DNA of 64,000 nucleotides from Phyllobacterium bourgognense (GTDB taxonomy: Bacteria > Pseudomonadota > Alphaproteobacteria > Rhizobiales > Rhizobiaceae). The stretch's first letter is position 1, and each line of letters begins with the position of its first letter. Both the position numbers and the translations under genes were made by a program. The notes beneath the pieces were generated by a model. The model searched no databases. It had not been told where the DNA came from and saw only the letters and a program-made list of their open reading frames with translations. Positions 11,470 through 35,391 of the stretch are shown piece after piece. The stretch covers positions 1-64,000 of the forward strand of contig NZ_QPJM01000001.1 in the NCBI RefSeq assembly GCF_003337575.1, written 5' to 3'.

Positions 11470-11662
11470 TGTGGCGGTTTGACAGGGTTCCTGCTCACAA
11501 GTCCAGCAGCTTTTCGAGATCCTTGGTCATCAACAACTGTGTGCACTTCATGAAATGCAACGAGTAAGAGCTTTTTTCTTGCCTGATTAAACTTTAGGCG
11601 AATTGTGCAGCGCAGCAAATTTTGAAAGGGTTGTAAGCAATTGTAGTCAGGATTTTGCACTT

Positions 11663-14248
11663 ATGAATTTTCGCGTTTTGCTGCTTTTCGCAGCGCTCGG
11701 CCTCAGCGCCTGCAATGGTTCCGGTTCTTCCGATTCCTCCACAACAGCTACGAGTACGTTCGATGCCGAGTCTGCCGCGGCACAGGCGAAGCTCGATGGG
11801 CTCAACGCAGACATCGGCCAAAAGACCGCTGCTTTAACTGCCGCCGGAACCAAGCTCACCGAAACCGAACAGGCAGACGCGGCGCTCAGCGCCAAAATCC
11901 AGCAGGGTGAAGAACAACTGGCTGGGCTGCTCGTCGCGGCGGCTGCCAAGACCGGGGAAGTCGAAACGGCGAGCACGACGCTCAAAGAGCGGCGGGATGA
12001 ACTTGCCGGCCTCGAGGGGCCGAACGGCCGGATCGAGATACTGAGCCGGGAAATCGCTGATCTGGAGAAGACGCGCGATGGTCTTGCGGGCATCAAGGAC
12101 GGTGATCCGGGCGAAATTGCGCGGCTCAAAGGCGATCGCGAGGATTTGGAAAAGCGGTTGCTTGAGCTGAAGGGCGACCCCAACGGCGCGAATGACGAGA
12201 AAAGGCTGGGCACGATCAAACTGGCCGAAAAGGAGCTGTCGGCCCGCACAAACGAACTCACCGCCCTGACGGGGGACCCGAAAGACCCGCAGAAGCCGGG
12301 CAAGATCAAGCTGGCGATGGATACTCTGGCCACATATGAGGGTACGGGCGGGAAGATCGAAGTAGCCAAGACAGAGCTTGCACGGCTCGACAAGCTGAAG
12401 AACGATGCGCTTGAGGATACCAAGACAGCAAAACTCGAAGCAGTGCGCATCCGCAGCAGTGCCTTGATCGAGACCGGACAATTTGCCGAGGCGGCGAAAA
12501 TCCTCGAGGCAGCGGGCCTGACAACGGACGGCCCGGCGCTTCGCATCGTCGAGGCTTTCGTCAAGGATGGCAAGATCATCGAGGCAGCGGGCGAATTGAC
12601 GAAGCTCGCGCCGCGCAAATCCGTGGCGGCGCTCTACACCCGCGCCGGCATGGACCAGGAAGCGTATAAGCTTTATGCGCCGCCGGACTTCCAACTGGTC
12701 GACAAAACGGAATATGATGGCTCGGCCGGCGCGCAGCTCACTGCTGCCGTGGACGAGAAGCCATCGGTCAAACGCCAAAAGATGATGCTGAACGGCAAGA
12801 CCTTCTGGTACACAGCATCAGCCGGTCATTTGACCGCCTTTGCCAAGAGCCCGGAAAAACAGGACCCGCAGGCCTCGATCTTCTATACCGCCTATACGCG
12901 CGACGATTTGCCGAAGGAGGATCGCCCCGTCACCTTCTTTTTCAACGGCGGGCCAGGCGCGTCATCGATCTATCTGCATCTTACGTCGTGGGCGCCAAAG
13001 CGGCTTGTCATCGATGCACCGAAAGTCAAGCCGGAATGGGCTGACAACCCGCCGGAAAAATTCAATCAGGTCGATGACAAGGAATCCCTCATGGATAAAA
13101 CAGACCTTGTCTTCGTCGATATCATACCAGGCACAGGCTACTCGCAAGCAATCGCTCCAAATACCAATCAGAGCTTCTGGGATGTCACCGCCGATGTGCA
13201 ACTGTCGCATCGGTTCATTCAGCGCTATGTCAATTACAACCAACGCCAGGAATCGCCAAAATATCTCTATGGCGAATCCTATGCAGGCGGTACCCGTGTA
13301 CCGAAGCTGGCGCGGGCCATGGAGGAGGCAGGCGAGAAAGGCTTTGACGCCAGCCAGGCTGGCGCAAGAACCAAGGTTTTGACTGGCGTCGTCTTCCATT
13401 CGCCTGGATTTTATGCGGGCGATAACGATGCGGCCATGCTGCCAACGACTGCCATGACTGCGATTGCTATCAAAAAAATCACAATACCGGCAACGACAAC
13501 GCTCGACGTCTATGCTCAGGAGTTGCGCGGCTTCATGACAGACACTTATTTGCCCGCCCGTGCATCCAAGAAAAATGTCGATATTTCGAAGTATACGGGA
13601 TCGTCGAGTTCTGCCGCGAAGGATCTCCTACCGGACGTTGTTTTTAACACGTACGATGCCCGGATGTATCTCCTGCGTGGTCATGAGTTTGATCCCGTTG
13701 CCGGACCGAGGGAGACGCCGTGGTACAATATAGATTTTTTCGAAGAACGTGCTTTTTACAATGCCATTACTGTGCTTCTTCCTCGCGATACGAACTATAA
13801 AGCGACATCATCTTATATCAATGCCTCCTGGAATAGCTGGTATCATCCATCTGCTGGTGCCTTTGAAAGTTGGAAAGGCGGAGAATTGAGAAACGGCTTG
13901 TCGGATATTGTAGCTGCACTTGGAATGAATCCTTCGCTCAAGCTTCTCACCGTACATGGCTATTATGATACGGCGACACCTTTTTATCGCACGGAGCTGG
14001 ATCTCAAAGGTGTCGAGATTGATCCCGTGAAGAAAACCACCCTGCTTGACCGCATTCCGGTGAAGAACTTTGAAGGCGGGCACATGATCTACTATTCGGA
14101 AAAGGCGCGCGAGCCGCTGAAGAGGACGCTCGACGAGTTCTACGATGCGCCGCCCTACGGCACGGGGCCGACAATTGTCAAAGCACTCGATCTTGTCACT
14201 GCCGCGCCGGTGCAGGGTGCGCCTGTCCCTGCCGTTGCCCTGCATTAG
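11663..14248 (+). CDS. S10-family serine carboxypeptidase lipoprotein with long N-terminal coiled coil (cassette 1)
   Basis: 861 residues from the ATG at 11663 (MNFRVLLLFAALGLSAC), whose lipobox marks a lipoprotein. Residues about 30-260 are Glu/Lys/Ala-rich coiled coil with repeated LKGD / LTGDP turns; a short helical, repeat-like region follows (AGQFAEAAKILEAAGL). The last 500 residues are a serine carboxypeptidase: FFFNGGPGASS (oxyanion region), YGESYAGGTRVP (nucleophile Ser, 13270-13290), HGYYDTATPF (Asp) and FEGGHMIYY (His). The natural substrate is unknown; periplasmic peptide trimming is likely. Immediately downstream is a small EF-hand gene, the same pairing as at 21683-23820. The coiled-coil extension is absent from that second copy. 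Confidence 0.88.
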   Translation: MNFRVLLLFAALGLSACNGSGSSDSSTTATSTFDAESAAAQAKLDGLNADIGQKTAALTAAGTKLTETEQADAALSAKIQQGEEQLAGLLVAAAAKTGEVETASTTLKERRDELAGLEGPNGRIEILSREIADLEKTRDGLAGIKDGDPGEIARLKGDREDLEKRLLELKGDPNGANDEKRLGTIKLAEKELSARTNELTALTGDPKDPQKPGKIKLAMDTLATYEGTGGKIEVAKTELARLDKLKNDALEDTKTAKLEAVRIRSSALIETGQFAEAAKILEAAGLTTDGPALRIVEAFVKDGKIIEAAGELTKLAPRKSVAALYTRAGMDQEAYKLYAPPDFQLVDKTEYDGSAGAQLTAAVDEKPSVKRQKMMLNGKTFWYTASAGHLTAFAKSPEKQDPQASIFYTAYTRDDLPKEDRPVTFFFNGGPGASSIYLHLTSWAPKRLVIDAPKVKPEWADNPPEKFNQVDDKESLMDKTDLVFVDIIPGTGYSQAIAPNTNQSFWDVTADVQLSHRFIQRYVNYNQRQESPKYLYGESYAGGTRVPKLARAMEEAGEKGFDASQAGARTKVLTGVVFHSPGFYAGDNDAAMLPTTAMTAIAIKKITIPATTTLDVYAQELRGFMTDTYLPARASKKNVDISKYTGSSSSAAKDLLPDVVFNTYDARMYLLRGHEFDPVAGPRETPWYNIDFFEERAFYNAITVLLPRDTNYKATSSYINASWNSWYHPSAGAFESWKGGELRNGLSDIVAALGMNPSLKLLTVHGYYDTATPFYRTELDLKGVEIDPVKKTTLLDRIPVKNFEGGHMIYYSEKAREPLKRTLDEFYDAPPYGTGPTIVKALDLVTAAPVQGAPVPAVALH

Positions 14249-14259
14249 GAGAGCGATCC

Positions 14260-14631
14260 ATGACCATGTCACGTACAATCATCATCGCGCTTCTCTTGAC
14301 CGCAATGGCCGGATCAACCCAAGCCGGCGATCGCGTCTGGGATCCGGAACCTGGAGCCAAAACGCAAAAGCAGGATGCGGCTTCGATCCAGAAGCAACTC
14401 GATCAGGAACTGCGGGCCAAATTCGACGCGGCGGCGAAGTCCAATCACCTTCTCACCGCACAAGCTGCCAGCGATGCCGGCTGGGGCTTCGTCGCCGATC
14501 ATTTCGCCGAGATCGATCGCGACCACGACGGCTATGCCAGCCTCAGTGAAGCGCAGGCCTTCTTCGATGGCCGCTCGCCCCTGCCTGCCGCCAGAGCAAG
14601 AGCTGCGGCGAAAGTGCAGGTGGTGGAGTAG
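14260..14631 (+). CDS. Periplasmic EF-hand protein (cassette 1 partner)
   Basis: 123 residues, starting 11 bases after the S10 gene stop. It has an N-terminal signal peptide (IIIALLLTAMAGSTQAG) and one canonical calcium-binding loop, DRDHDGYASLSE, with Asp at positions 1, 3 and 5, Gly at 6 and Glu at 12. The C terminus is a short basic/alanine stretch ending VQVVE. A paralogue lies at 23392-23820 behind the second S10 gene, with a degenerate loop and the ending IQIIE. The tight pairing suggests a calcium-dependent partner or inhibitor of the peptidase; this is inference. The start could be M1 (14260) or M3. Confidence 0.8.
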   Translation: MTMSRTIIIALLLTAMAGSTQAGDRVWDPEPGAKTQKQDAASIQKQLDQELRAKFDAAAKSNHLLTAQAASDAGWGFVADHFAEIDRDHDGYASLSEAQAFFDGRSPLPAARARAAAKVQVVE

Positions 14632-14782
14632 GACCGGGCCCTGACAGAAGGCGTGCCATGGGAGGCGCGCCATTTCCGGCGAGAAATGTCGCCGGTCCGA
14701 TTGACGACCCTTGGTGCTATCCCGATAGTGCAACCAGCAAATCACTACGTTGCATTGATCGAGACGCATCAGGGAGACAATC

Positions 14783-15894
<1,112 letters not shown>

Positions 15895-15895
<1 letters not shown>

Positions 15896-16365
15896 TGGGC
15901 GAGAACGTCAAGGTTGTCTTGAGCGGGCTGGACGAGCTTAGCCCGCGCGACCTTTATGACATGCTGAAATTGCGGGTGGATGTGTTCGTAGTCGAGCAGA
16001 AATGCCCCTATCCCGAGCTAGACGGCAAGGATGTGGATGCGCTCCATTTGAGGCTGCTTTGCGGGAACGATCTTGTCGGGAGCGTGCGAATCCGCAAGCC
16101 CGCAAAAACCGATCCGGCTGCGCGGATAGGCCGGGTTGTCGTTGCGCCTCAACACCGCGGCAAGAAGCTCGGTGACAGGCTGATGGTCGAGGCCATCGCG
16201 CAGTGCGAGCGGCTTTATCCCGAGAGCCCGATCAAACTATCGGCGCAAAGCCAGTTGCTGCGGTTTTATGGATCCTTCGGTTTCGTGCCGATCTCGAAGG
16301 AATATCTCGAAGACGGGATTCCCCATGTCGACATGCAGCGCCCCGCCGCGCTAACCACGGAGTGA
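15895..16365 (+). CDS. GNAT-family acetyltransferase (ElaA-like)
   Basis: 156 residues. The ATG at 15895 overlaps the dehydrogenase stop codon (TGATG), so translation is probably coupled. The ElaA-type signature is DMLKLRVDVFVVEQKCPYPELDGKD near the start (VFVVEQ and YPE-DG), followed by an acetyl-CoA binding loop VVVAPQHRGKKLGDRLM and a C-terminal YGSFGFVPISKEYLEDGIPHVDM. The substrate of ElaA proteins is not established. Its place within a formaldehyde-detoxification operon is notable. Confidence 0.9.
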
Positions 16366-16371
16366 GAAACG

Positions 16372-17022
16372 ATGTGGAAGCGGCATAATCCCTTCTATCT
16401 TGCCGCTTTTTTTGGCATCGTCGCTCTCGCTCTGGCGCTGTTCTTCGCGCCACGTATCGCCTATGTCGTGGCTGCCAATGTGTTCTTCGTGATTTATCTG
16501 GTTCTCTCCATGATCAAGGTCCGGAAATTGACGCCGGAATACCTGCAGCGCAACGCGGCCAAATCCGATGAACCGGTGTGGATCATTTTTGCGGTGACTT
16601 TCGGCACCGTCGTCGTCGCCGTCAGTTCGCTGTTCGTGCTGATCAATTCCAGTGAGGATCCGCATCCTCTTGATCTATCGCTGGCGCTGGCTGCGGTGCC
16701 GCTCGGCTGGTTCACCGTGCACATGATGGCGGCCATCCACTATGCCCATCTCTACTGGCAGCCGGACGAGACGGCAGAGGGCGCAAAGCGAGCGCCCCGC
16801 AAGCATGTCGGCGGGCTCGCCTTCCCGGGCGACAAGGAGCCAGGCGGTTATGATTTTCTCTATTTCTCATACGTTATCGGCATGACGGCGCAGACATCGG
16901 ATACTGCCATCACCAGTACAGATATGCGCAAGATTAATCTGCTACACGCCATTGTTTCATACGTGTTCAATACGGTGCTCGTTGCCGCCGCCGTCAACGT
17001 CATCGTTTCGCTGGGCCAATAA
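16372..17022 (+). CDS. DUF1345 membrane protein
   Basis: 216 residues, four or five transmembrane helices (for example LAAFFGIVALALALFF and VVAANVFFVIYLVLSM near the N terminus and the last 30 residues). The conserved DUF1345 motif YDFLYFSYVIGMTAQTSD with the following TS-DMRKINLLHA is present. Function is unknown. The gene follows the acetyltransferase by six bases and precedes S-formylglutathione hydrolase by 21, so it is part of the formaldehyde operon. Confidence 0.88.
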   Translation: MWKRHNPFYLAAFFGIVALALALFFAPRIAYVVAANVFFVIYLVLSMIKVRKLTPEYLQRNAAKSDEPVWIIFAVTFGTVVVAVSSLFVLINSSEDPHPLDLSLALAAVPLGWFTVHMMAAIHYAHLYWQPDETAEGAKRAPRKHVGGLAFPGDKEPGGYDFLYFSYVIGMTAQTSDTAITSTDMRKINLLHAIVSYVFNTVLVAAAVNVIVSLGQ

Positions 17023-17043
17023 GAACTTCAAACGGGAATATTC

Positions 17044-17877
17044 ATGGAAACGCTATCTATCGCCAAGAGTTTCGAGGGAATGCAAGGGGTCTATCGCCAT
17101 CGCAGCGATGCCTGCCAGTGCGACATGACCTTCGCGGTTTTCCTGCCGCCACAGGCAAAGGAGCATCCGGTGCCGCTGCTCTGGTACCTTTCAGGCCTGA
17201 CCTGCACCCATCAGAATGTCATGGACAAGGGCGAATATCGCCGCGTTGCCGCCGAGCTTGGCATTGCAATCATCTGCCCGGACACCAGCCCGCGCGGCGA
17301 GGATGTTCCCGACGAAAAGGACAACTGGCAGTTTGGCAGCGGTGCCGGTTTCTATCTGGATGCCACTCAGGAACCTTGGTCGACGAATTATCGTATGGCG
17401 AGCTATATCGCCTATGAACTTCCCGAACTGGTTGCCGCGCAGTTTCCAGTCGACGTGACGCGCCAGAGCATTTTTGGCCACTCCATGGGCGGTCACGGCG
17501 CCATTACCCTGGCTCTAAAGAATCCGGAACGCTTCAGGTCGGTGTCCGCCATTGCACCTATTGCTCGGCCGATGGTTGCGGGCTGGTCGCGTCCCGCCTT
17601 CGAGAAATATCTCGGCAACGATGAAACGGCATGGCGCGCCTATGACAGTGTGGCATTAATCGAGGACGGCTATCGTGTGCCCGAATTGCTGGTCGACCAA
17701 GGGAAGGCCGACGGATTTCTTGATGACGGGCTTCGGCCCTGGCTTCTGGAAGAGGCCTGTGCCAAAGCCGACATCCCGCTGACACTCAACATGCGCGACG
17801 GCTACGACCACTCGTATTTCTTTATCTCGACATTCATGGCCGATCATATCGCCTGGCACGCTGACAGACTGTCTTAA
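17044..17877 (+). CDS. fghA: S-formylglutathione hydrolase
   Basis: 277 residues, full length. An esterase D-type alpha/beta hydrolase that releases formate and glutathione from S-formylglutathione. The nucleophile elbow GHSMGGHGA, the catalytic Asp in the VDQGKADGFLDD region and the His in DGYDHSYFF are present, as are the family motifs WYLSGLTCTHQN and DTSPRG. It closes the operon that begins with the glutathione-dependent formaldehyde dehydrogenase; a strong terminator follows directly. Confidence 0.96.
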   Translation: METLSIAKSFEGMQGVYRHRSDACQCDMTFAVFLPPQAKEHPVPLLWYLSGLTCTHQNVMDKGEYRRVAAELGIAIICPDTSPRGEDVPDEKDNWQFGSGAGFYLDATQEPWSTNYRMASYIAYELPELVAAQFPVDVTRQSIFGHSMGGHGAITLALKNPERFRSVSAIAPIARPMVAGWSRPAFEKYLGNDETAWRAYDSVALIEDGYRVPELLVDQGKADGFLDDGLRPWLLEEACAKADIPLTLNMRDGYDHSYFFISTFMADHIAWHADRLS

Positions 17878-17882
17878 ACGTC

Positions 17883-17922
17883 CGCGACCATCTCATCGGT
17901 TGTGAGATGGTCGCGTTTCTTT
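17883..17922 (+). terminator. Rho-independent terminator after fghA
   Basis: 13-bp stem CGCGACCATCTCA / TGAGATGGTCGCG with loop TCGGTTG, followed by TTTCTTTTG. It starts six bases after the fghA stop and ends just before the convergent SRPBCC gene. Confidence 0.88.
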
Positions 17923-17928
17923 TGTCGC

Positions 17929-18378
17929 TCAGTCGAGGCGGGCGATCACGTGCTCGAGCTGTCCGATGAATTTCTGCCAGCCATATTGCGCGCCGCGATA
18001 ATTGGCTTCTTCGTTTTGACCAAAGCCGGACTGCTCCATGCGCAGGAATGTGCCGCCATTCACCGGGGTGAGCGTGAAGGTGACGATGGTCTTGACGCCG
18101 TTTGCGGCTTCATCGCCTGAGGCGTTCCAGCTGTAGGAAAGGCGCTGCTGCGGCTCTACCACCAGGACTTCGCAATCGGTGACGCCGTTCCAGTTTGGCA
18201 TGGGCGGGGCGCGGAAGTTGAACCTGTGACCAACAACGGGCTGGAAGTCGTTGCTCATAAGCCAATCAGCGATAAGCGGGCCTTGGGTGAGTGCGCGCCA
18301 GACTTTTTCCGGCGCATGCGGCATTTCCCGTTCGATGGTGAGGGAGCGTGTGGCTGTAGCTGTAGCATGTTGAGTCAT
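17929..18378 (-). CDS. SRPBCC (AHSA1-like) domain protein
   Basis: 149 residues. The START/Bet v1-like helix-grip fold is indicated by LTIEREMPHAPEKVWRALT at the N terminus, GHRFNFRAPPMPNWNG in the middle and the amphipathic C-terminal helix RGAQYGWQKFIGQLEHVI. Members bind small hydrophobic ligands; the ligand here is unknown. It overlaps the ArsR-type regulator gene by four bases (ATGA), the widespread ArsR-SRPBCC pair in which the regulator controls both genes. Confidence 0.9.
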   Translation of the reverse strand: MTQHATATATRSLTIEREMPHAPEKVWRALTQGPLIADWLMSNDFQPVVGHRFNFRAPPMPNWNGVTDCEVLVVEPQQRLSYSWNASGDEAANGVKTIVTFTLTPVNGGTFLRMEQSGFGQNEEANYRGAQYGWQKFIGQLEHVIARLD

Positions 18379-18698
18379 TGGTCCATCCTGTTTAACAAAT
18401 CTTCGAGACGATCGAATCGCTCACGCCAGAATGCGCCGTAGAGGCCCATCCAGTCGATCAGCGGCGCGAGACCTTGCGGTTCCGCGCTATAGTGGGTTTG
18501 GCGCCCGTCGGGCCTATCCCGCACCAGGCCGGCAAGCTTGAGCACGCCGAGATGCTTGGATACGGCAGGCTGTGAGATGCCAGAATATTCGGTCAATCCC
18601 CGCACGTTTTGCTCGCCGTGCCGCATCAGCTGTTCGAAAATCGCGCGGCGTGTCGGGTCGGCGAGAGTGCGGAAAATACCGTCGGCTGTTGTGTCCAT
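18375..18698 (-). CDS. ArsR-family transcriptional regulator
   Basis: 107 residues. Winged helix-turn-helix with TADGIFRTLADPTRRAIFEQLM at the start and the recognition-helix region SGISQPAVSKHLGVLKLAGLV; the C-terminal half (GLAPLIDWMGLYGAFWRERFDRLEDLL) is that of regulators linked to SRPBCC partners. No metal-binding CVC motif is visible, so it is not a classical arsenic sensor. A perfect GAGCTATG-N8-CATAGCTC dyad 15 bases upstream of its start is a likely autoregulatory operator. Confidence 0.92.
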   Translation of the reverse strand: MDTTADGIFRTLADPTRRAIFEQLMRHGEQNVRGLTEYSGISQPAVSKHLGVLKLAGLVRDRPDGRQTHYSAEPQGLAPLIDWMGLYGAFWRERFDRLEDLLNRMDQ

Positions 18699-18712
18699 GA
18701 TTGATAACCCGT

Positions 18713-18736
18713 GAGCTATGAATTAATCCATAGCTC
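18713..18736. promoter_or_regulatory. Probable ArsR operator
   Basis: Perfect 8-bp dyad GAGCTATG-AATTAATC-CATAGCTC located 15-38 bases upstream of the arsR-type start codon (18698, minus strand). Size and position fit an autoregulated ArsR operator. Binding is inferred. Confidence 0.55.
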
Positions 18737-18770
18737 TACAGTTATGAATCTGTCAAGCCGAAAAATGAAA

Positions 18771-19532
18771 TTATGATCTGGCCTTTTCCGCCAGTCGGGG
18801 GTCGTTGGCAAAAATCTCCCGACTGAACCCAAGCCTGAGTTCGGGATAGTCGCAGATGGCGTTGACGCCGTGCCCGGAGAAATGCAGCCGCCATGTCGTC
18901 ATGCGAACAGGGTTCGGCATGGCAAAGCAGCCGCATGACAGCAGCGCAAGATTGATCCCGCCAAGCGGATCGCGCACGGATTGATAGCGGATGAGGTCTA
19001 TACGCGCCTCATGCGCTTTGTCGGCAAGATCGAGACAAGCGGAATAGTCGGTGAGGTGCGTCCACTGCGGCGCCTGCTCGATGAAGGGTACTGCGGTTAG
19101 ATCGATCGCGCTGGTGGTGGCATAGCGTGCTTCGAACGCGGTGAATTCGAGGGCGTTTCGCGGCCAGGGTGTCGCCGGACTTTCGGCAAAGAAAAGCAGG
19201 CGGTAGAAGGCAGTTTCGGCCACAGAGGTTTCAACGTTCTCGCTGGCATAGAAGACGCCGGGCGAATAACCTTCGCGCCGAAAGCGCGAATTGCCGGGAT
19301 AGCGGCCATAGCGAAACGGCGTCGCCAGCAGGTAATCGAGATGGACGCACGCTGGCGGAAGCGGTGGCTTGGTGGCTTCCAGCTCGTCTTCAAGCAGAGC
19401 CTGCTCATCGAGCGTATCGACCAGCTTCATGGTGGAAACGCGGTGCTGCGCTTCAACCAGACGCCAGCATGCGCCGTGCAGAGATCGCGATTCAGATCGG
19501 AGCGCGTCGGGCGTCCAGATAGGCAAGGACAT
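18771..19532 (-). CDS. RES-domain toxin
   Basis: 253 residues from the ATG at 19532; a TTG at 19547 is an alternative. RES-domain toxins are ADP-ribosyltransferase-like enzymes that degrade or consume NAD+. Visible RES features: WRLVEAQHRVST near the N terminus (Arg), FRYGRYPGNSRFRREGYSPGVFYAS (conserved Tyr and Arg) and ETSVAETAFYRLLFF (Glu), and a late serine region (HFSGHGVNAICDYPE). It overlaps the upstream Xre/MbcA-type antitoxin gene by 41 bases, the normal order in this toxin-antitoxin family. Confidence 0.9.
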   Translation of the reverse strand: MSLPIWTPDALRSESRSLHGACWRLVEAQHRVSTMKLVDTLDEQALLEDELEATKPPLPPACVHLDYLLATPFRYGRYPGNSRFRREGYSPGVFYASENVETSVAETAFYRLLFFAESPATPWPRNALEFTAFEARYATTSAIDLTAVPFIEQAPQWTHLTDYSACLDLADKAHEARIDLIRYQSVRDPLGGINLALLSCGCFAMPNPVRMTTWRLHFSGHGVNAICDYPELRLGFSREIFANDPRLAEKARS

Positions 19533-19878
19533 GGGCGAGACCGTCAATGGTTTTGATCCGGTTGAGCGGCTTGCCGCCGAGCATGGTATTGTCAGTGCGC
19601 ATCCACTGTCGCGCTACGGTATCGTCGCCGCCGACAATGGCGTCGAGCGAGCGGTAGAGGCGGATGAACAGGAGCGCGAGTTCGTAGCTCTTGCCGGTGA
19701 GCGGGCCGGCAGTTCCTTCGTTGCGCTTGAGCCGGGAAATGCTGGGTTCGGACAGGCCGACGACGGTTGACAGTTCCCTGGCGGTCAGGCCGAGCAATTC
19801 AGCGGAACGCAGCAGCGCCTTGGACACAACGGCGGTCTTGCTCGGGGTGTCTTCAATATGTTGCGCGGTGGTTCGCAT
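19492..19878 (-). CDS. Xre/MbcA/ParS-type antitoxin (DUF2384)
   Basis: 128 residues from the ATG at 19878, which has AAAGGAG eight bases upstream; a GTG at 19893 is less likely. The N-terminal helix-turn-helix is LLGLTARELSTVVGLSEPSISRLKRNEG; the C-terminal DUF2384 toxin-binding region is LFIRLYRSLDAIVGGDDTVARQWMRTDNTMLGGKPLNRIKTIDGLAHVLAYLDA. The last residues neutralise the RES toxin in known complexes. The upstream gap carries a palindromic element (19952-20074) shared with the end of the P450 gene. Confidence 0.92.
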   Translation of the reverse strand: MRTTAQHIEDTPSKTAVVSKALLRSAELLGLTARELSTVVGLSEPSISRLKRNEGTAGPLTGKSYELALLFIRLYRSLDAIVGGDDTVARQWMRTDNTMLGGKPLNRIKTIDGLAHVLAYLDARRAPI

Positions 19879-19951
19879 GAGAGCTCCTTTCACTGGAAAT
19901 AAATGTACATTAAATTTCTGGTGAAATCAAGTTCTCCGTTGCATATCTATG

Positions 19952-20074
19952 GTGCGTGGTTCGACGGGGCTCACCATGAGATTTTTGACTGCAGGGAGTG
20001 TTTGCTTGCGACGTTTGCCGGACGTTTTTGCACAACACGACTTCCCTCATGGTGAGCCCCGTCGAACCACGCAC
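19952..20074. repeat. Inverted-repeat element, family 2, copy 2
   Basis: Perfect 29-base arms (19952-19980 and 20046-20074) centred on GGTTCGACGGGGCTCACC, with a 65-base internal segment containing TGCAGGGAG, a word shared with copy 1 at 8828-8944. Where copy 1 has CAAGCTC in both arms this copy has CGGGGCTC in both. It lies between the RES/Xre pair and the P450 gene. Confidence 0.9.
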
Positions 20075-20088
20075 TGCGCTTCTGCAGG

Positions 20089-21468
20089 TCACCGTCTTGC
20101 CGTCACGCTCATCGGCAATCCGCCATCCGGTTGTGTGGTCAGTTTCTGCACGGGCCATGGCTTTATATCGGGTGCCATATCGAAGCGATAGCGATGCAGC
20201 AGGGTCGCCAAAGCGATGATTGCCTCCTGCAGCGCAAAGCTTGCGCCGATGCAGACGCGGGGTCCGGCCCCGAAGGGCAGATATTGAAACCGGTCGATCC
20301 TGTCGCGATTTTCCGGATGAAAGCGCGACGGCATGAAAGCTTCGGGATTTTCCCAATAAAGCCGGTGGCGATGCACAGTCCATGGCATGACCAGAACCGC
20401 CGCGCCCTTTGGAAGCTTCAAATCCTTGTACTGATCGTCCTCGATAGGTTCGCGGTTGATCGACGGCGCGGGGGGATAAAGCCGCATGGCCTCCTCGAAT
20501 GCGGAGCGGGTGAAGGGCAAGGCGTCCAGCCATTGATGCGGCGGCGGGACCTCGCGCTGACCCATGAAAGCATCGATCTCCTGCTCGATCAGATCGCGTT
20601 CCCATGGCGCCTTTGCCAGCAAATACAGCGTCCAGCCCAATGCACGCGCCGTGGTTTCGTGGCCCGCGCCGATGAAGGTGATGATATTGTCCTCGATCTC
20701 GGCGCGCGAAAGCCCTTGGGGACCTTCGGCTCTCAGCAGGAGGGTGAGGAAATCGTTCGGAACCTTGTCGCCTTCCTTTTCCATGCGGGCCTTGCGCATC
20801 TCCATCGTGTTGGCGACGATCTGGCGGAAGAAGGCGAGCGCGCGGCGGCCGCGGATCTGGGTGAAGCGCGGCAACCATGCAGGTGCTCCGAGAAGATCGA
20901 GTGGATCGACCCGGCCCATGGTTTCGAACAGCCGGTCCACCTCATGGGAAAACTGGTCCGGATCACCAGCAATTTCTCCGGAAAACAAAGTGTCCGCAAG
21001 AATGTCATAGGTCAGCATGGTCATGTCGCGCGATACATCGGTCGTGCCGGTCAAGCCGTCGTAGCGATCGGCGAAAACATCGGCTGTCCGCTTCATGCTT
21101 TCGGCGAAACCATCGATGTGGCGCGGCGTGAAAACCGGCGCCATCGCCTTGCGCGACCGTTTCCAGACATCGCCTTCCGCCGTCAGCAATCCATCGCGCA
21201 GGATGGGGCGAAGGATGCGCTGGCGTACCGCCGCCATCTTGTAATTCTTCGCATTGTCGACGAGCACATGGCGGATCAGCCCGGGATCATTGGCGATGAT
21301 CGTGTGGGCGAAGGACCAGTCGATGGAAACCCAGGGTTCATTATAAGAAGGCTCCCCCCACAGCTCCAACGGATTGCGGTAAATGGTGCGAATAAGCTGC
21401 AATGTGCCGACAGGACCAGTACGCGGTACTGGCGCCGGCGGGACAAAAGCGATCGGTATCGTATCCAT
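20089..21468 (-). CDS. Cytochrome P450
   Basis: 459 residues, complete. Heme-binding loop FGAGPRVCIGASFA (axial Cys), I-helix AGHETTARALGW, K-helix ExxR in FEEAMRLYPPAP and the PERF-like FMPSRFHPENRDR are all present. The absence of a membrane anchor and the length are typical of soluble bacterial P450s. A strong GGAGGTGATGA sequence overlaps the start. No ferredoxin or reductase gene is adjacent, so electrons must come from elsewhere. Substrate unknown; the motifs resemble fatty-acid or terpenoid hydroxylases, but this is only an impression. Confidence 0.95.
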   Translation of the reverse strand: MDTIPIAFVPPAPVPRTGPVGTLQLIRTIYRNPLELWGEPSYNEPWVSIDWSFAHTIIANDPGLIRHVLVDNAKNYKMAAVRQRILRPILRDGLLTAEGDVWKRSRKAMAPVFTPRHIDGFAESMKRTADVFADRYDGLTGTTDVSRDMTMLTYDILADTLFSGEIAGDPDQFSHEVDRLFETMGRVDPLDLLGAPAWLPRFTQIRGRRALAFFRQIVANTMEMRKARMEKEGDKVPNDFLTLLLRAEGPQGLSRAEIEDNIITFIGAGHETTARALGWTLYLLAKAPWERDLIEQEIDAFMGQREVPPPHQWLDALPFTRSAFEEAMRLYPPAPSINREPIEDDQYKDLKLPKGAAVLVMPWTVHRHRLYWENPEAFMPSRFHPENRDRIDRFQYLPFGAGPRVCIGASFALQEAIIALATLLHRYRFDMAPDIKPWPVQKLTTQPDGGLPMSVTARR

Positions 21469-21682
21469 TCATCACCTCCGCCACGGATGTGGGGACAAGC
21501 GGGGAAAAAGTCTACCAATTAACCGGAATTGGCGGCTCCTTACCCTACTAATTGCTACGTTGACGCAAAGAGCCGAATGCGTTCTGGTCCAGCCTGAATA
21601 CGTCCGACAGTCTATTTTGCGCATCATTTTTTAAAGAACATACCAGAAACATATTCAAATCGATATTGTGAGGTTTTTCACC

Positions 21683-23395
21683 ATGCATTTTCGCCTGTGC
21701 TGGCTTTTGCTGGCGGTCTTTCTGGCATCGTGCAGCGGGAGTTCGGATTCGGAGGAGTCTGACGCGAGCACGTTTGAGCCGCTACCCGTTCTGGAACGTT
21801 CGGTGTTTAGCTATGGCGCTGGCGATTCAATCTACTATCGGTATGTCGATCAAACACCAACCAGCAAAACTCAAGTTATCACGGTGAAGGGCGTTGCTAT
21901 GGAGTTTACCGCGACCGCGGGGCATTTGGTTGCCTCGCGTCCAGTCAACGGGGCTGGGAGTCGGGATGATGCGGCGATTTTCTATACAGCCTATGCCCGT
22001 GATGATCTGCCGAAAGATACGCGTCCAATAACGTTCATTTTCAACGGCGGACCTGGAGGTGCCTCGGCTGATCTTGACCTCAATTTTCTTGGACCAAAAA
22101 GTGTGGATCTCGATGTGCTTACGTCGGCATCGACAACCCTGCCGCTGATCGACAATCCCAATACATTGCTCGACAAATCGGACCTTGTTTTTGTTGACCC
22201 AGTGGGAACCGGTTACTCCTCGGCGATCTTTCCGAGCGAAAATGTCGACTTCTGGGGAGTTGACAGTGATGCTAGTATTCTCAGCGATTTTGTCATCAAA
22301 TATATCAATACCAACAAGCGCCAATACTCGCCAAAATATATCTACGGCGTCTCCTACGGCGGCTTTCGCACGCCAATTATGGCGCGACTGCTCCTGGAAA
22401 GGAGTGCCACCGACTACGCTGAGGGGAAAGACGGCAAGAATATCCTGAACGGGTTGGTTCTCAACTCACCTTTGATGAACCGGAGGAATGACTGCCTAAC
22501 GCATTCCACCTTTGCCTGTGACGGTGCCGTGCCAACCTATGCCATGATTGCCGACCATCACGGCAAGGCGACTGCTCGAAACGCAGCGACTTCCGACGTG
22601 TTTCTGATCGGTGTCCGCTCGTTCGCCGCGGAATTCAAGAAACATTATGACGGGGCTTTCTCCGGACTGGGATGGGGCGATAGAACCGGTTGGGAAGCAT
22701 TCTTGCGGGACAACAAGGAGGCGCCGCCATTCCTTGATCGACTCTATCAGTTGACCGGTTTGGGCAAAGTGTTCACGCTCGGCGACACGGCGGCGAACAA
22801 TCCCTGGATCGAGAATCCAAATATGAATGCCTGGCGCTTTACGGCATTGTTTGGTGAAAGATACGGTCCCGACAGACGCAAGCTCTCCTTGAATGATGGC
22901 CGGGATTATTTACCACCGGATACAATCGATCCGGCTGTCGATGATGGAAGCGACGTTTACGAGTATGTCCGACAATATCAAAGACAATTCATTGGTTATC
23001 AGCAGGCCGCATCCTATTTGGGGTTCAACGGCGAGAGTTTTGACCGGTGGTCCTATAGTCCTGATCAGAAGCTACCCAGCGATCCCGATCGAATAGAAAA
23101 CAGCATTCCTGATCTCGCCTTTGGGCTGCAGCTCAATCCACAATTGAAGGTTTTGATTCAGCACGGCTACTATGATTTGAATACGCCTTTTCACAAATCT
23201 GAACTTGATATCAGTCGATCGGGGATAGCGGCCAAGGTGCCCGTGAGACTTTATAGCGGCGGTCACGGTGTATCGCCATTCGATACAGACGGCTATGATC
23301 AGCTCAAAGCAGAACTGGGATCATTCTACGATCAAACTCCTGCGGCCAAACTGGCACGCTGGCAAGAGGCAAAACTTGCGGAGCCAGGACAATGA
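21683..23395 (+). CDS. S10-family serine carboxypeptidase-like lipoprotein (cassette 2)
   Basis: 570 residues from the ATG at 21683 (an in-frame GTG at 21668 is possible). Signal peptide with lipobox LASC. The peptidase domain parallels cassette 1: FIFNGGPGGASADL, DDLPKDTRPITF, PVGTGYSSAI, nucleophile YGVSYGGFRTP (22342-22374), Asp in HGYYDLNTPF, His in YSGGHGVSPF. The usual Glu before the catalytic Ser (GES) is replaced by Val, while Ser, Asp and His remain. It lacks the 230-residue coiled coil of the first copy. Its stop overlaps the start of the EF-hand partner (ATGA). Confidence 0.87.
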   Translation: MHFRLCWLLLAVFLASCSGSSDSEESDASTFEPLPVLERSVFSYGAGDSIYYRYVDQTPTSKTQVITVKGVAMEFTATAGHLVASRPVNGAGSRDDAAIFYTAYARDDLPKDTRPITFIFNGGPGGASADLDLNFLGPKSVDLDVLTSASTTLPLIDNPNTLLDKSDLVFVDPVGTGYSSAIFPSENVDFWGVDSDASILSDFVIKYINTNKRQYSPKYIYGVSYGGFRTPIMARLLLERSATDYAEGKDGKNILNGLVLNSPLMNRRNDCLTHSTFACDGAVPTYAMIADHHGKATARNAATSDVFLIGVRSFAAEFKKHYDGAFSGLGWGDRTGWEAFLRDNKEAPPFLDRLYQLTGLGKVFTLGDTAANNPWIENPNMNAWRFTALFGERYGPDRRKLSLNDGRDYLPPDTIDPAVDDGSDVYEYVRQYQRQFIGYQQAASYLGFNGESFDRWSYSPDQKLPSDPDRIENSIPDLAFGLQLNPQLKVLIQHGYYDLNTPFHKSELDISRSGIAAKVPVRLYSGGHGVSPFDTDGYDQLKAELGSFYDQTPAAKLARWQEAKLAEPGQ

Positions 23396-23820
23396 GGCAG
23401 ATATTCCTGATGGTTCTTCTCGTTCTCGCAACTGCGACCGGAGTTCCGGCGAGCGCCAAGGATAGTGTTCTGCGCAGGCCCTCTGAACACTTGCTGCTGC
23501 GTCGGCCACTTCCGGACCCTACTCTGGCGAGCAAAACCAAATCACCGATTACGCCCGAGGCAGTGCGCGATGCCGTGGACGCGCGGATCCGATCACTCTT
23601 TGTACGGGCGGCGGACCCGTCGACAGGTCGTGTAACCGTCACGTCTGCAGAAAACGCAGGATTGGGCTACTTCACCGGTCATTTCGCAGCAATGGACAGC
23701 AATCGCGACAGCAGTCTGACTTATGACGAGGTTAAAGACTTTTTGGATGCGCAATCTCCCATCGAAAAACCGGCGACGATTGAAAGGCCGGCAATCGGGG
23801 ATATCCAGATTATCGAATAG
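23392..23820 (+). CDS. Periplasmic EF-hand-like protein (cassette 2 partner)
   Basis: 142 residues, overlapping the S10 gene by four bases. Signal peptide (IFLMVLLVLATATGVPASA). The single EF-hand-like loop DSNRDSSLTYDE keeps Asp 1, Asn 3, Asp 5 and Glu 12 but has Ser at the glycine position 6. The preceding stretch GYFTGHFAAMDSN aligns with GFVADHFAEIDRD of the paralogue at 14260-14631, and both proteins end with an acidic tail (IQIIE here, VQVVE there). Likely partner of the adjacent peptidase; function unknown. Confidence 0.78.
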   Translation: MRQIFLMVLLVLATATGVPASAKDSVLRRPSEHLLLRRPLPDPTLASKTKSPITPEAVRDAVDARIRSLFVRAADPSTGRVTVTSAENAGLGYFTGHFAAMDSNRDSSLTYDEVKDFLDAQSPIEKPATIERPAIGDIQIIE

Positions 23821-26582: not shown

Positions 26583-26609
26583 CCTCATCTTTCCCAAGGA
26601 GAGATGAGG
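26583..26609. terminator. Possible bidirectional terminator between gyrB and vapC
   Basis: Perfect 8-bp stem CCTCATCT / AGATGAGG with an 11-base loop, 40 bases after the gyrB stop and spanning the last codons of the convergent PIN toxin gene. There is no T run, so strength is doubtful. Confidence 0.35.
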
Positions 26610-26998
26610 TCCAGGCCAGTTGTGCTGAAATCGGTAACATTCCGGGTGGCTAAACGGCCGCCATTCACCCGAACAATGGCTGCAATCATACCATCAGGAG
26701 CCGACATTATTGATCCTTGCCGTGTGGCGGTTCCCATGATCTCGCCATAAGCCATCGCTGCCTCTTCGGTTAAACCAAATATGCGGTCAGCAAAACGCCG
26801 ACGCCAGTCCGAGAGACCCCGCTCGAGGCGAAGGGCCCGTTGATCGGGCAATATCTTCTGAATGCCAAACGCAATCTCTGCGATCGTTACAGTCGGTAAA
26901 GCCAGTTCTGAATCATGCCGGACGAGCCAAGAGATCACAGCCTCGTTTGGCGCCTTGCGTAAGGTTTCGGAAAGAACATTGGTGTCTAGAAATATCAA
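26585..26998 (-). CDS. VapC-type PIN-domain toxin (FitB-like), second copy
   Basis: 137 residues. Acidic residues of the PIN active site: MIFLDTNVLSE (D5), TVTIAEIAFGI (Glu), SAPDGMIAAI (Asp) and TRNVTDF (Asp). It overlaps the upstream ribbon-helix-helix antitoxin gene by four bases (ATGA). Endoribonuclease activity against tRNA or similar RNA is expected from the family. Confidence 0.93.
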   Translation of the reverse strand: MIFLDTNVLSETLRKAPNEAVISWLVRHDSELALPTVTIAEIAFGIQKILPDQRALRLERGLSDWRRRFADRIFGLTEEAAMAYGEIMGTATRQGSIMSAPDGMIAAIVRVNGGRLATRNVTDFSTTGLDLISPWER

Positions 26999-27243
26999 AG
27001 CTCAGGACCCGGATGGCCGCGGCGCCCTTGCCGGATGACAGCCTCCAGATCGATATCTGTACCGGCATCTTTTGACAGGCGGTTGTAGAATGCCGACGCT
27101 GGCTCCCGGCCGGTTTCGCGGATTTCATAGGACTCAAGAGCCCGCTCTACAATTTCGGCGATTGATCTGTTTTCACGGCTCGCCAGGCGATGTGCCAAGT
27201 CGCGTGCTCTGGCGCTGCGCACAGACAATTGAGGTTCGGCCAT
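26995..27243 (-). CDS. VapB/FitA-type antitoxin
   Basis: 82 residues. The N terminus PQLSVRSARARDLAHRLASRENRSIAEIVERALESYE is a ribbon-helix-helix/VapB-like DNA-binding domain; the C-terminal DAGTDIDLEAVIRQGRRG would occupy the PIN active site. It is coupled to vapC. A hairpin-rich stretch lies directly upstream, including ATATGGGC/GCCCATAT halves (27275-27325) that could be the autoregulatory operator. Confidence 0.9.
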   Translation of the reverse strand: MAEPQLSVRSARARDLAHRLASRENRSIAEIVERALESYEIRETGREPASAFYNRLSKDAGTDIDLEAVIRQGRRGHPGPEL

Positions 27244-35127: not shown

Positions 35128-35186
35128 ACCAAGAACAACCCTGCGGTGCAATTGACTTTGTCGTTGCGCCGCTCCATCATGACTTC

Positions 35187-35275
35187 ATTCCGAGGGGGGC
35201 ACTGCACAGTGCTGAGATAGCGTCGAGCTGGACCCTTGAACCTGATCCGGGTTATGCCGGCGTAGGAACGGGAAT
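35187..35275 (+). promoter_or_regulatory. TPP riboswitch (thi-box)
   Basis: All conserved elements are present: closing stem ATTCC / GGAAT, a GGGGGGC...GTGCTGAGAT arm (CTGAGAT at 35212-35218), the ACCCTTGAACCTGATC core (35232-35247) and CGGGTTATGCCGGCGTAGGAA (split here around 35248-35268). It senses thiamine pyrophosphate and should reduce expression of the thiamine genes that follow. About 116 bases separate it from the first start codon; the expression platform was not resolved, although a CTCC...GGAG hairpin lies near 35325. Confidence 0.93.
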
Positions 35276-35391
35276 TGAGCCTTCTTCGCACACCTCAAAT
35301 CTTGTCTTCGCACATATCCGGATCTCCGATCATGATGGAGTCCAGACCGTGCCCGTTCCCTTGAAATTTCTCCGCCAAAAACGGTAGTGGC

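What the first reader, a model, noticed from the sequence alone, without database searches (positions are those of the whole stretch)
11663..23820. Two paralogous secreted S10 carboxypeptidase plus EF-hand cassettes
Two gene pairs about 9 kb apart (11663-14631 and 21683-23820) each join an S10 serine carboxypeptidase-like lipoprotein with a small signal-peptide protein carrying a single EF-hand loop. The second pair overlaps by four bases, the first is separated by 11. The small proteins share a GxxxxHFAxxD motif before the loop and near-identical acidic tails (VQVVE, IQIIE). This looks like a conserved calcium-linked peptidase-partner unit that I cannot match to a described system.
Basis: partly seen in the sequence, partly recalled or inferred. 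Interest (0 to 1): 0.7.

Follow-up and report, generated by a model that had tools for sequence, protein, structure and literature searches.

The report
Secreted peptidase with its own partner
Plant-associated bacteria carry many copies of a two-gene unit in which a membrane-anchored serine peptidase is followed by a small secreted protein found almost only beside it, probably to hold the peptidase in check or help it mature.

Summary
The window is from a Phyllobacterium. Its genome has five S10 + small EF-hand-like (EFp) pairs, and EFp searches of that genome hit only these five places. In 20 Phyllobacterium genomes, 49 of 54 EFp hits have an S10 gene upstream; of the other five, two are at contig ends, two are deletion remnants of a pair, one is alone. 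The two genomes without S10 lack EFp. The unit also occurs in Burkholderia and Paraburkholderia.

"Calcium-linked" is not supported: loop ligands are degenerate in 12 of 52 Phyllobacterium and 8 of 9 Burkholderiales EFps. Conserved instead are a GWG..ADHF..ID core and, in Phyllobacterium only, a C-terminal [V/I]Q[I/V][I/V]E tail on a variable linker.

Dispersed copies share an upstream element that also precedes lipoprotein alpha-galactosidases. Window pair 2 belongs to an S10 subgroup with Glu to Val beside the catalytic serine.

Best reading: EFp is a cognate partner, most likely a periplasmic inhibitor, of a lipoprotein S10. Binding and inhibition are inferred; structure prediction never ran. 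I found no description in print. New variant of the protease plus cognate-partner operon.

The parts
11585..11605 (+). Upstream element GATTAAACTTTAGGCGAATTG, 57 bp before the start of pair 1's S10
   Evidence: Shared with 18 other S10 upstream regions; 17-mer sites in 19 genomes, reversed control 0
11663..14248 (+). Pair 1 lipoprotein S10 peptidase (861 aa), triad motifs GESYAGG, HGYYDTATP, GGHM
   Evidence: PF00450 49.5 bits; motifs
11720..12650 (+). Approximate coiled-coil and TPR-like N-terminal stalk of pair 1's S10
   Evidence: Alignment with other S10s; like stalk on GH27 lipoproteins; limits set by eye
14260..14631 (+). Pair 1 EFp (123 aa), loop DRDHDGYASLSE
14614..14628 (+). Conserved C-terminal tail VQVVE of pair 1's EFp
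21683..23395 (+). Pair 2 lipoprotein S10 peptidase (570 aa), GVSYGG subgroup, no stalk
   Evidence: PF00450 63.3 bits; subgroup
23392..23820 (+). Pair 2 EFp (142 aa), loop DSNRDSSLTYDE; starts inside the S10 stop (ATGA)
23803..23817 (+). Conserved C-terminal tail IQIIE of pair 2's EFp

Best explanation
Each pair is an operon for a lipoprotein S10 peptidase and its cognate small exported partner (EFp), a two-hand EF-like fold that in general does not depend on calcium. Shown: gene linkage across two classes of Proteobacteria, tight spacing, and pairs inherited as units. Inferred: EFp is exported with the peptidase, binds it and blocks it in the periplasm until it is anchored or displayed. In Phyllobacterium the C-terminal [V/I]Q[I/V][I/V]E tail, on a flexible linker, would enter the active-site cleft as a product-like peptide, because S10 enzymes bind peptide C-termini; in Burkholderiales, which lack the tail, the globular core would have to do the work. 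Also inferred: the peptidases are foraging exo-enzymes, because the same upstream element precedes lipoprotein glycosidases.
For: EFp hits in the own genome lie only behind S10 (5 of 5); 49 of 54 in the genus; co-presence and co-absence in 20 genomes; 39 of the 42 pairs with a spacing between -60 and 400 nt are within 32 nt, 17 of them overlapping; mirror-tree r = 0.83 over 45 pairs, 0 of 2000 permutations; the pair is found again in Burkholderiales; S10 Ser, Asp and His are kept in the untruncated enzymes apart from one His to Gln, so there is an activity to control; the tail is kept in 51 of 52 rows with many synonymous DNA versions. Precedent: Bacteroides C10 proteases with downstream staphostatin-like inhibitors, one 5 bp behind and some exported (PMC3462683, passages).
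Against: No binding, inhibition or structure was shown. The tail is missing in all nine Burkholderiales rows. Co-inheritance follows from linkage alone. Seven S10s in the genus have no EFp nearby by HMM, and 10 more of the L008 form do without one, so an S10 can do without a partner. One EFp is alone (L092), and four of the 49 paired S10 ORFs are truncated while their EFp persists.
Confidence: 0.42

Rival explanations
1. EFp is a dedicated foldase or holdase (like lipase-specific foldases, recalled) that helps the S10 lipoprotein fold, mature or reach the outer membrane, and is not an inhibitor.
For: The same linkage, coupling and co-inheritance data fit; S10s with long stalks may need help.
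Against: Lipoprotein S10s without EFp exist (L085, L086, L087, L233); a conserved free C-terminal tail is not explained.
Confidence: 0.27
2. EFp is a calcium-sensing regulatory subunit: it binds or releases the S10 according to external calcium.
For: 40 of 52 Phyllobacterium EFps, including both in the window, keep canonical loop ligands.
Against: 12 of 52 Phyllobacterium and 8 of 9 Burkholderiales EFps have degenerate ligands yet keep the core and the S10 linkage.
Confidence: 0.12
3. The cassettes are a lipoprotein toxin-immunity system: conserved N-terminal anchor and stalk, exchangeable enzyme head, and EFp as immunity protein for the S10 head.
For: Stalk with different heads (S10, GH27), one GH27 head at the same hrpB-frmA site as window pair 1; many diverged paralogues per genome; cognate gene behind the head.
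Against: The heads are a peptidase and a glycosidase, not known toxins; GH27 heads have no EFp by HMM; no PADLOC match for the window proteins; no delivery system was looked for.
Confidence: 0.08
4. EFp and S10 are only neighbours that spread together, with no contact.
For: No interaction has been shown; linkage by descent explains part of the pattern.
Against: Pairing holds in two classes, at different loci and often with overlapping genes. Related generic EF-hand proteins show no S10 within 14 loci read at 6.6-10 kb.
Confidence: 0.04

Closest known systems
Peptidase family S10 (PF00450; yeast carboxypeptidase Y, KEX1)
   Same: Above-cut-off match and the Ser, Asp, His motifs; KEX1 (1ac5) is the only solved relative found by sequence
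   Different: Bacterial lipoproteins, some with long coiled-coil stalks; pair 2 has Val for the Glu before the catalytic Ser; dedicated EFp partner
Protease plus cognate inhibitor operons: staphopain-staphostatin, SpeB-Spi, Bacteroides C10 protease-Bti (PMC3462683, passages)
   Same: Small exported or cytoplasmic partner coded next to the protease, several paralogous pairs per genome
   Different: Cysteine proteases with other inhibitor folds; inhibition not shown here; EF-hand-like partner
SitA-SitI lipoprotein toxins of myxobacteria (PMC5562445, passages)
   Same: Lipoprotein with a variable C-terminal domain and a downstream cognate gene
   Different: SitA heads typically resemble nucleases; here S10 or GH27 heads, with no evidence of toxicity or exchange
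Generic small bacterial EF-hand proteins (EF-hand_6, EF-hand_7 in Pfam)
   Same: Fold and part of the core; 13 of 24 members match EF-hand_6 weakly
   Different: Those found in the phylum search are not beside S10, and most members here keep only one good loop or none

Membership tests
Peptidase S10 | Profile match above curated cut-off | tested here: met
   49.5 and 63.3 bits against 21.9
Peptidase S10 | Catalytic Ser, Asp, His | tested here: met
   Both window S10s have all three motifs
Peptidase S10 | Glu before the catalytic Ser (GESY), which I recall as part of C-terminal carboxylate recognition | tested here: not met
   Met in pair 1, not met in pair 2 (GVSY), as in 14 distinct Phyllobacterium S10s; 56 ORFs outside the genus have GESY
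Peptidase S10 | Carboxypeptidase activity | not testable with these tools
   No assay
EF-hand calcium-binding proteins | Profile match above curated cut-off | tested here: not met
   Best 15.9 against 25 and 15.1 against 30 bits
EF-hand calcium-binding proteins | Canonical ligands at loop positions 1, 3, 5, 12 | tested here: inconclusive
   Present in both window EFps and 40 of 52 Phyllobacterium rows, but in 1 of 9 Burkholderiales rows
Protease plus cognate inhibitor operon | Small partner gene coupled to the protease gene | tested here: met
Protease plus cognate inhibitor operon | Partner inhibits the protease | not testable with these tools
   Structure prediction unavailable; no assay
Polymorphic toxin-immunity system | Toxic head domain, with a cognate immunity gene for each head | tested here: not met
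   Heads are S10 or GH27; no EFp behind GH27 by HMM (other immunity families were not searched)

The most novel reading that the evidence does not exclude
An EF-hand fold has become a largely calcium-independent, dedicated inhibitor of S10 serine carboxypeptidases, with its conserved VQIIE-type C-terminal tail filling the peptidase cleft as a product mimic. The pairs form a co-regulated, head-swapping set of lipoprotein exo-enzymes (S10, alpha-galactosidase, perhaps alpha-mannosidase) in plant-associated bacteria.
Probability: 0.25. Interest if true: 0.75.

Novelty: new variant of a known kind. Interest (0 to 1): 0.52.

Why it matters
Where annotation was seen, the partner is a 'hypothetical protein' (P. 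sprentiae; P. largidicola), so the unit is not recognised there. If EFp controls S10 it would be a protein inhibitor of a serine carboxypeptidase family built on an EF-hand scaffold; the only protein inhibitor of this family that I recall is the PEBP-type yeast IC, not checked in a paper. It would also show an EF-hand fold kept for a protein contact after loss of its calcium site, and it points to a co-regulated set of lipoprotein exo-enzymes in root- and leaf-associated bacteria.

Tried and rejected
Calcium as the unifying feature: rejected as general. Unit confined to Phyllobacterium: my first conclusion, all seeded with Phyllobacterium sequences; tblastn against plasmid records overturned it. 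Phage origin: no hit for pair 1's EFp in phage records, no PHROGs match for the four window proteins. Defence system: no PADLOC match for the four window proteins. Natural S10-EFp fusion as proof of contact: one found (L090), but its lipoprotein signal lies in another frame, so I give it little weight. Sigma-70 promoter and terminator scans: 3 promoter-like sites at pair 1 (shuffles 1.4, sd 1.2) and 2 at pair 2 (2.8); terminators not above shuffles. Structure of S10 with EFp and of EFp alone: alignments A6 and A7 were built but prediction never ran. Weak phylum-level EF hits (18 of 25 hits, E from 1e-12 to 0.008): 14 were read at 6.6-10 kb and none has S10 beside it; the other four were seen only at 3 kb. 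In one search one motif match in L209 looked spurious; L231, the longer stretch of that place, has no S10.

Full report
What is there. Each S10 has a lipobox and its PF00450 score is above cut-off; EF-hand models match the small proteins only below cut-off. The small proteins carry Sec-type leaders by eye; no signal predictor was available. The genus is Phyllobacterium by inference: in 199 genomes of the family, EFp was found only in the own genome and one of the same genus; that one (G063) carries the same contig as Phyllobacterium sp. YR531; and the 13 loci found in named genomes are all Phyllobacterium (one peptide pattern, 73 stretches matched, 13 confirmed).

Own genome. PF00450 finds seven S10 genes. 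Searches with each window EFp find the same five places, all directly behind an S10. The two S10 genes without an EFp of their own are a 559-aa non-lipoprotein form (L008) and the second S10 of an S10-EFp-S10 cluster (L011).

Genus. With a 19-row profile, 18 of 20 genomes (own included) have EFp, 54 hits; PF00450 hits the same 18, 73 hits; the other two have neither. 49 of 54 EFp hits have a same-strand S10 domain within 3.5 kb upstream. In 42 of these 49 the spacing lies between -60 and 400 nt; 39 of the 42 are within 32 nt and 17 overlap; in the other seven the spacing I computed (earliest start codon) fell outside this range. Four of the 49 S10 ORFs are truncated: L090 second gene, L096 second gene, L104 first gene, L105. 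The five exceptions were read: two lie at contig ends in one genome whose partnerless S10s start other contigs (L088, L089); one follows an S10 that has lost its core (L091); one is an internal-deletion remnant of a pair (L094); one is an orphan with a degenerate loop (L092).

S10 without EFp directly behind it: 24 of 73. Ten resemble the L008 form by frame length and profile span (two of the ten were read: L008 and L232/L184); five are second members of S10-EFp-S10 clusters; two are at contig ends; seven have no EFp by HMM (L085, L086, two in L087, L233, L234 which is broken, L235).

Other genera. In a class sample of 385 genomes, the Phyllobacterium profile found only the own genome and one weak hit without S10 nearby. 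No EFp is found near the S10 genes read from other alphaproteobacterial genera (75 ORFs with some genes held twice, 73 with at least 450 nt downstream). In a tree of 115 S10 rows, 57 Phyllobacterium lipoprotein S10 rows fall on one side of a fully supported branch and the other 58 rows (other genera and the L008 form) on the other (quick method, midpoint root). tblastn of pair 1's S10 domain against plasmid records gave Burkholderiales as best hits, and pair 1's EFp hit one of the same records right behind its S10 (B. arboris). Of nine records opened (of 68 with a match), seven have S10 followed by an EFp; Caballeronia and Sphingobium do not. A Paraburkholderia EFp query hits 11 records: ten have S10 beside it by the coordinates, and one (P. 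caribensis MBA4, L260) is a truncated EFp without S10 in the 8 kb held. B. arboris has a second, different pair (L186). In a phylum sample of 398 genomes one relative (G978) has two pairs (L216, L217); 18 weaker hits are generic EF-hand proteins or noise, and none of the 14 read at 6.6-10 kb has S10.

What is conserved. Across 52 Phyllobacterium EFps (two remnants of 54 left out; one contig-end partial kept), the Phe, Ala, Gly and Phe of the core are nearly invariant (for instance F 49, A 52, G 52, F 50 of 52). Ligands at loop positions 1, 3, 5 and 12 (D; D/N/S; D/N/S; D/E, my criterion) are present in 40 of 52 and in 1 of 9 Burkholderiales EFps. The last five residues fit [VIT][QKRE]x[IV]x in 51 of 52 (a pattern chosen after seeing them) and the stricter [VI]Qx[IV][EKQRH] in 46, after a linker of variable length. 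The same pentapeptide is encoded by many DNA versions (VQVVE 13 copies, 7 versions; IQIIE 8, 7; VQIIE 7, 7), so selection acts on the protein. None of the nine Burkholderiales EFps has this tail.

Pairs move as units. EFp and S10 distance matrices correlate at r = 0.83 (45 pairs) and 0.79 among GESY-type pairs (31); none of 2000 permutations reached either value. This shows co-inheritance and does not by itself prove contact. Pair 1 is missing between hrpB and frmA in G063, which keeps pair 2 between a P450 gene and gyrB.

Two enzyme types. The 14 distinct untruncated S10s of the pair 2 type have GVSY and an Asp in place of the usual His after NGGPG; the 56 S10 ORFs read outside the genus (some held twice) have GESY. 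In carboxypeptidase Y the triad is S146, D338, H397, and a hydrogen-bond network at the bottom of S1' takes part in recognition (PMC6609556, passages); that the Glu before the Ser belongs to that network is recalled. Pair 2 may thus have altered specificity with its triad kept.

Shared control. Nineteen S10 upstream regions have GATTAAACTTTAGGCGAATTG with at most 4 mismatches, with a second block about 15 bp before it. AAACTTTAGRCGAATTG with up to 1 mismatch occurs 20 times in 19 genomes, the reversed control 0 times. By position, sixteen sites precede S10 genes (14 of the 15 exact sites, two with one mismatch), including all three in the own genome. Two precede lipoproteins with a like stalk but a GH27 alpha-galactosidase head and an NPCBM domain (L256 exact, L257 one mismatch); one (one mismatch) precedes a GH92 lipoprotein without that stalk; one (one mismatch) precedes nothing similar. 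The stalk likeness rests on weak pairwise matches in coiled-coil sequence (E about 1e-5 to 1e-6). L257 lies between hrpB and frmA, the site of window pair 1. Window pair 2 lacks this element (10 mismatches at best).

Mechanism. The evidence makes EFp a dedicated partner (I put that at about 0.85). Inhibitor is my first choice because protease plus cognate-inhibitor operons are an established arrangement, including exported inhibitors (PMC3462683, passages), and because a conserved free C-terminus suits an enzyme family that binds C-termini. A foldase is the closest rival.

Print. Searches for S10 with EF-hand, operon, Phyllobacterium, lipoprotein or periplasm, and for EF-hand with protease inhibitor, listed no description of the unit (listings only). 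The library lacks most subscription journals.

Noticed in passing
window 35183-35285 (+): TPP riboswitch (Rfam RF00059, 75.4 bits), the only Rfam match in the window.
   Followed up: no
window 18771-19893 (-): Two overlapping genes that look like a RES-domain toxin and its Xre/ParS-type antitoxin (recalled from sequence, no family search).
   Followed up: no
window 26585-27243 (-): Two overlapping small genes that look like a PIN-domain (VapC-type) toxin and antitoxin next to gyrB (recalled, no family search).
   Followed up: no
L256 4473-6605 (-), L257 963-3062 (+): Lipoproteins with a stalk like that of the window's pair 1 S10 but a GH27 alpha-galactosidase head and NPCBM domain; L257 occupies the hrpB-frmA site.
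   Followed up: partly
L258 918-3668 (+): GH92 lipoprotein behind a one-mismatch copy of the shared upstream element.
   Followed up: partly
S10 C-termini, table: 33 of 47 non-GVSY S10 rows end in a short hydrophobic stretch plus His, Gln or Asn (VALH, AALQ, TVLN), against 1 of 14 GVSY rows; meaning unknown.
   Followed up: no
L090 3516-5657 (-): Natural S10-EFp single open frame at the site of window pair 2, with its lipoprotein signal in another frame; probably decaying.
   Followed up: partly
L194 2098-7972 (+): Sphingobium plasmid with a TonB-dependent receptor gene followed by two S10 genes, without EFp.
   Followed up: no
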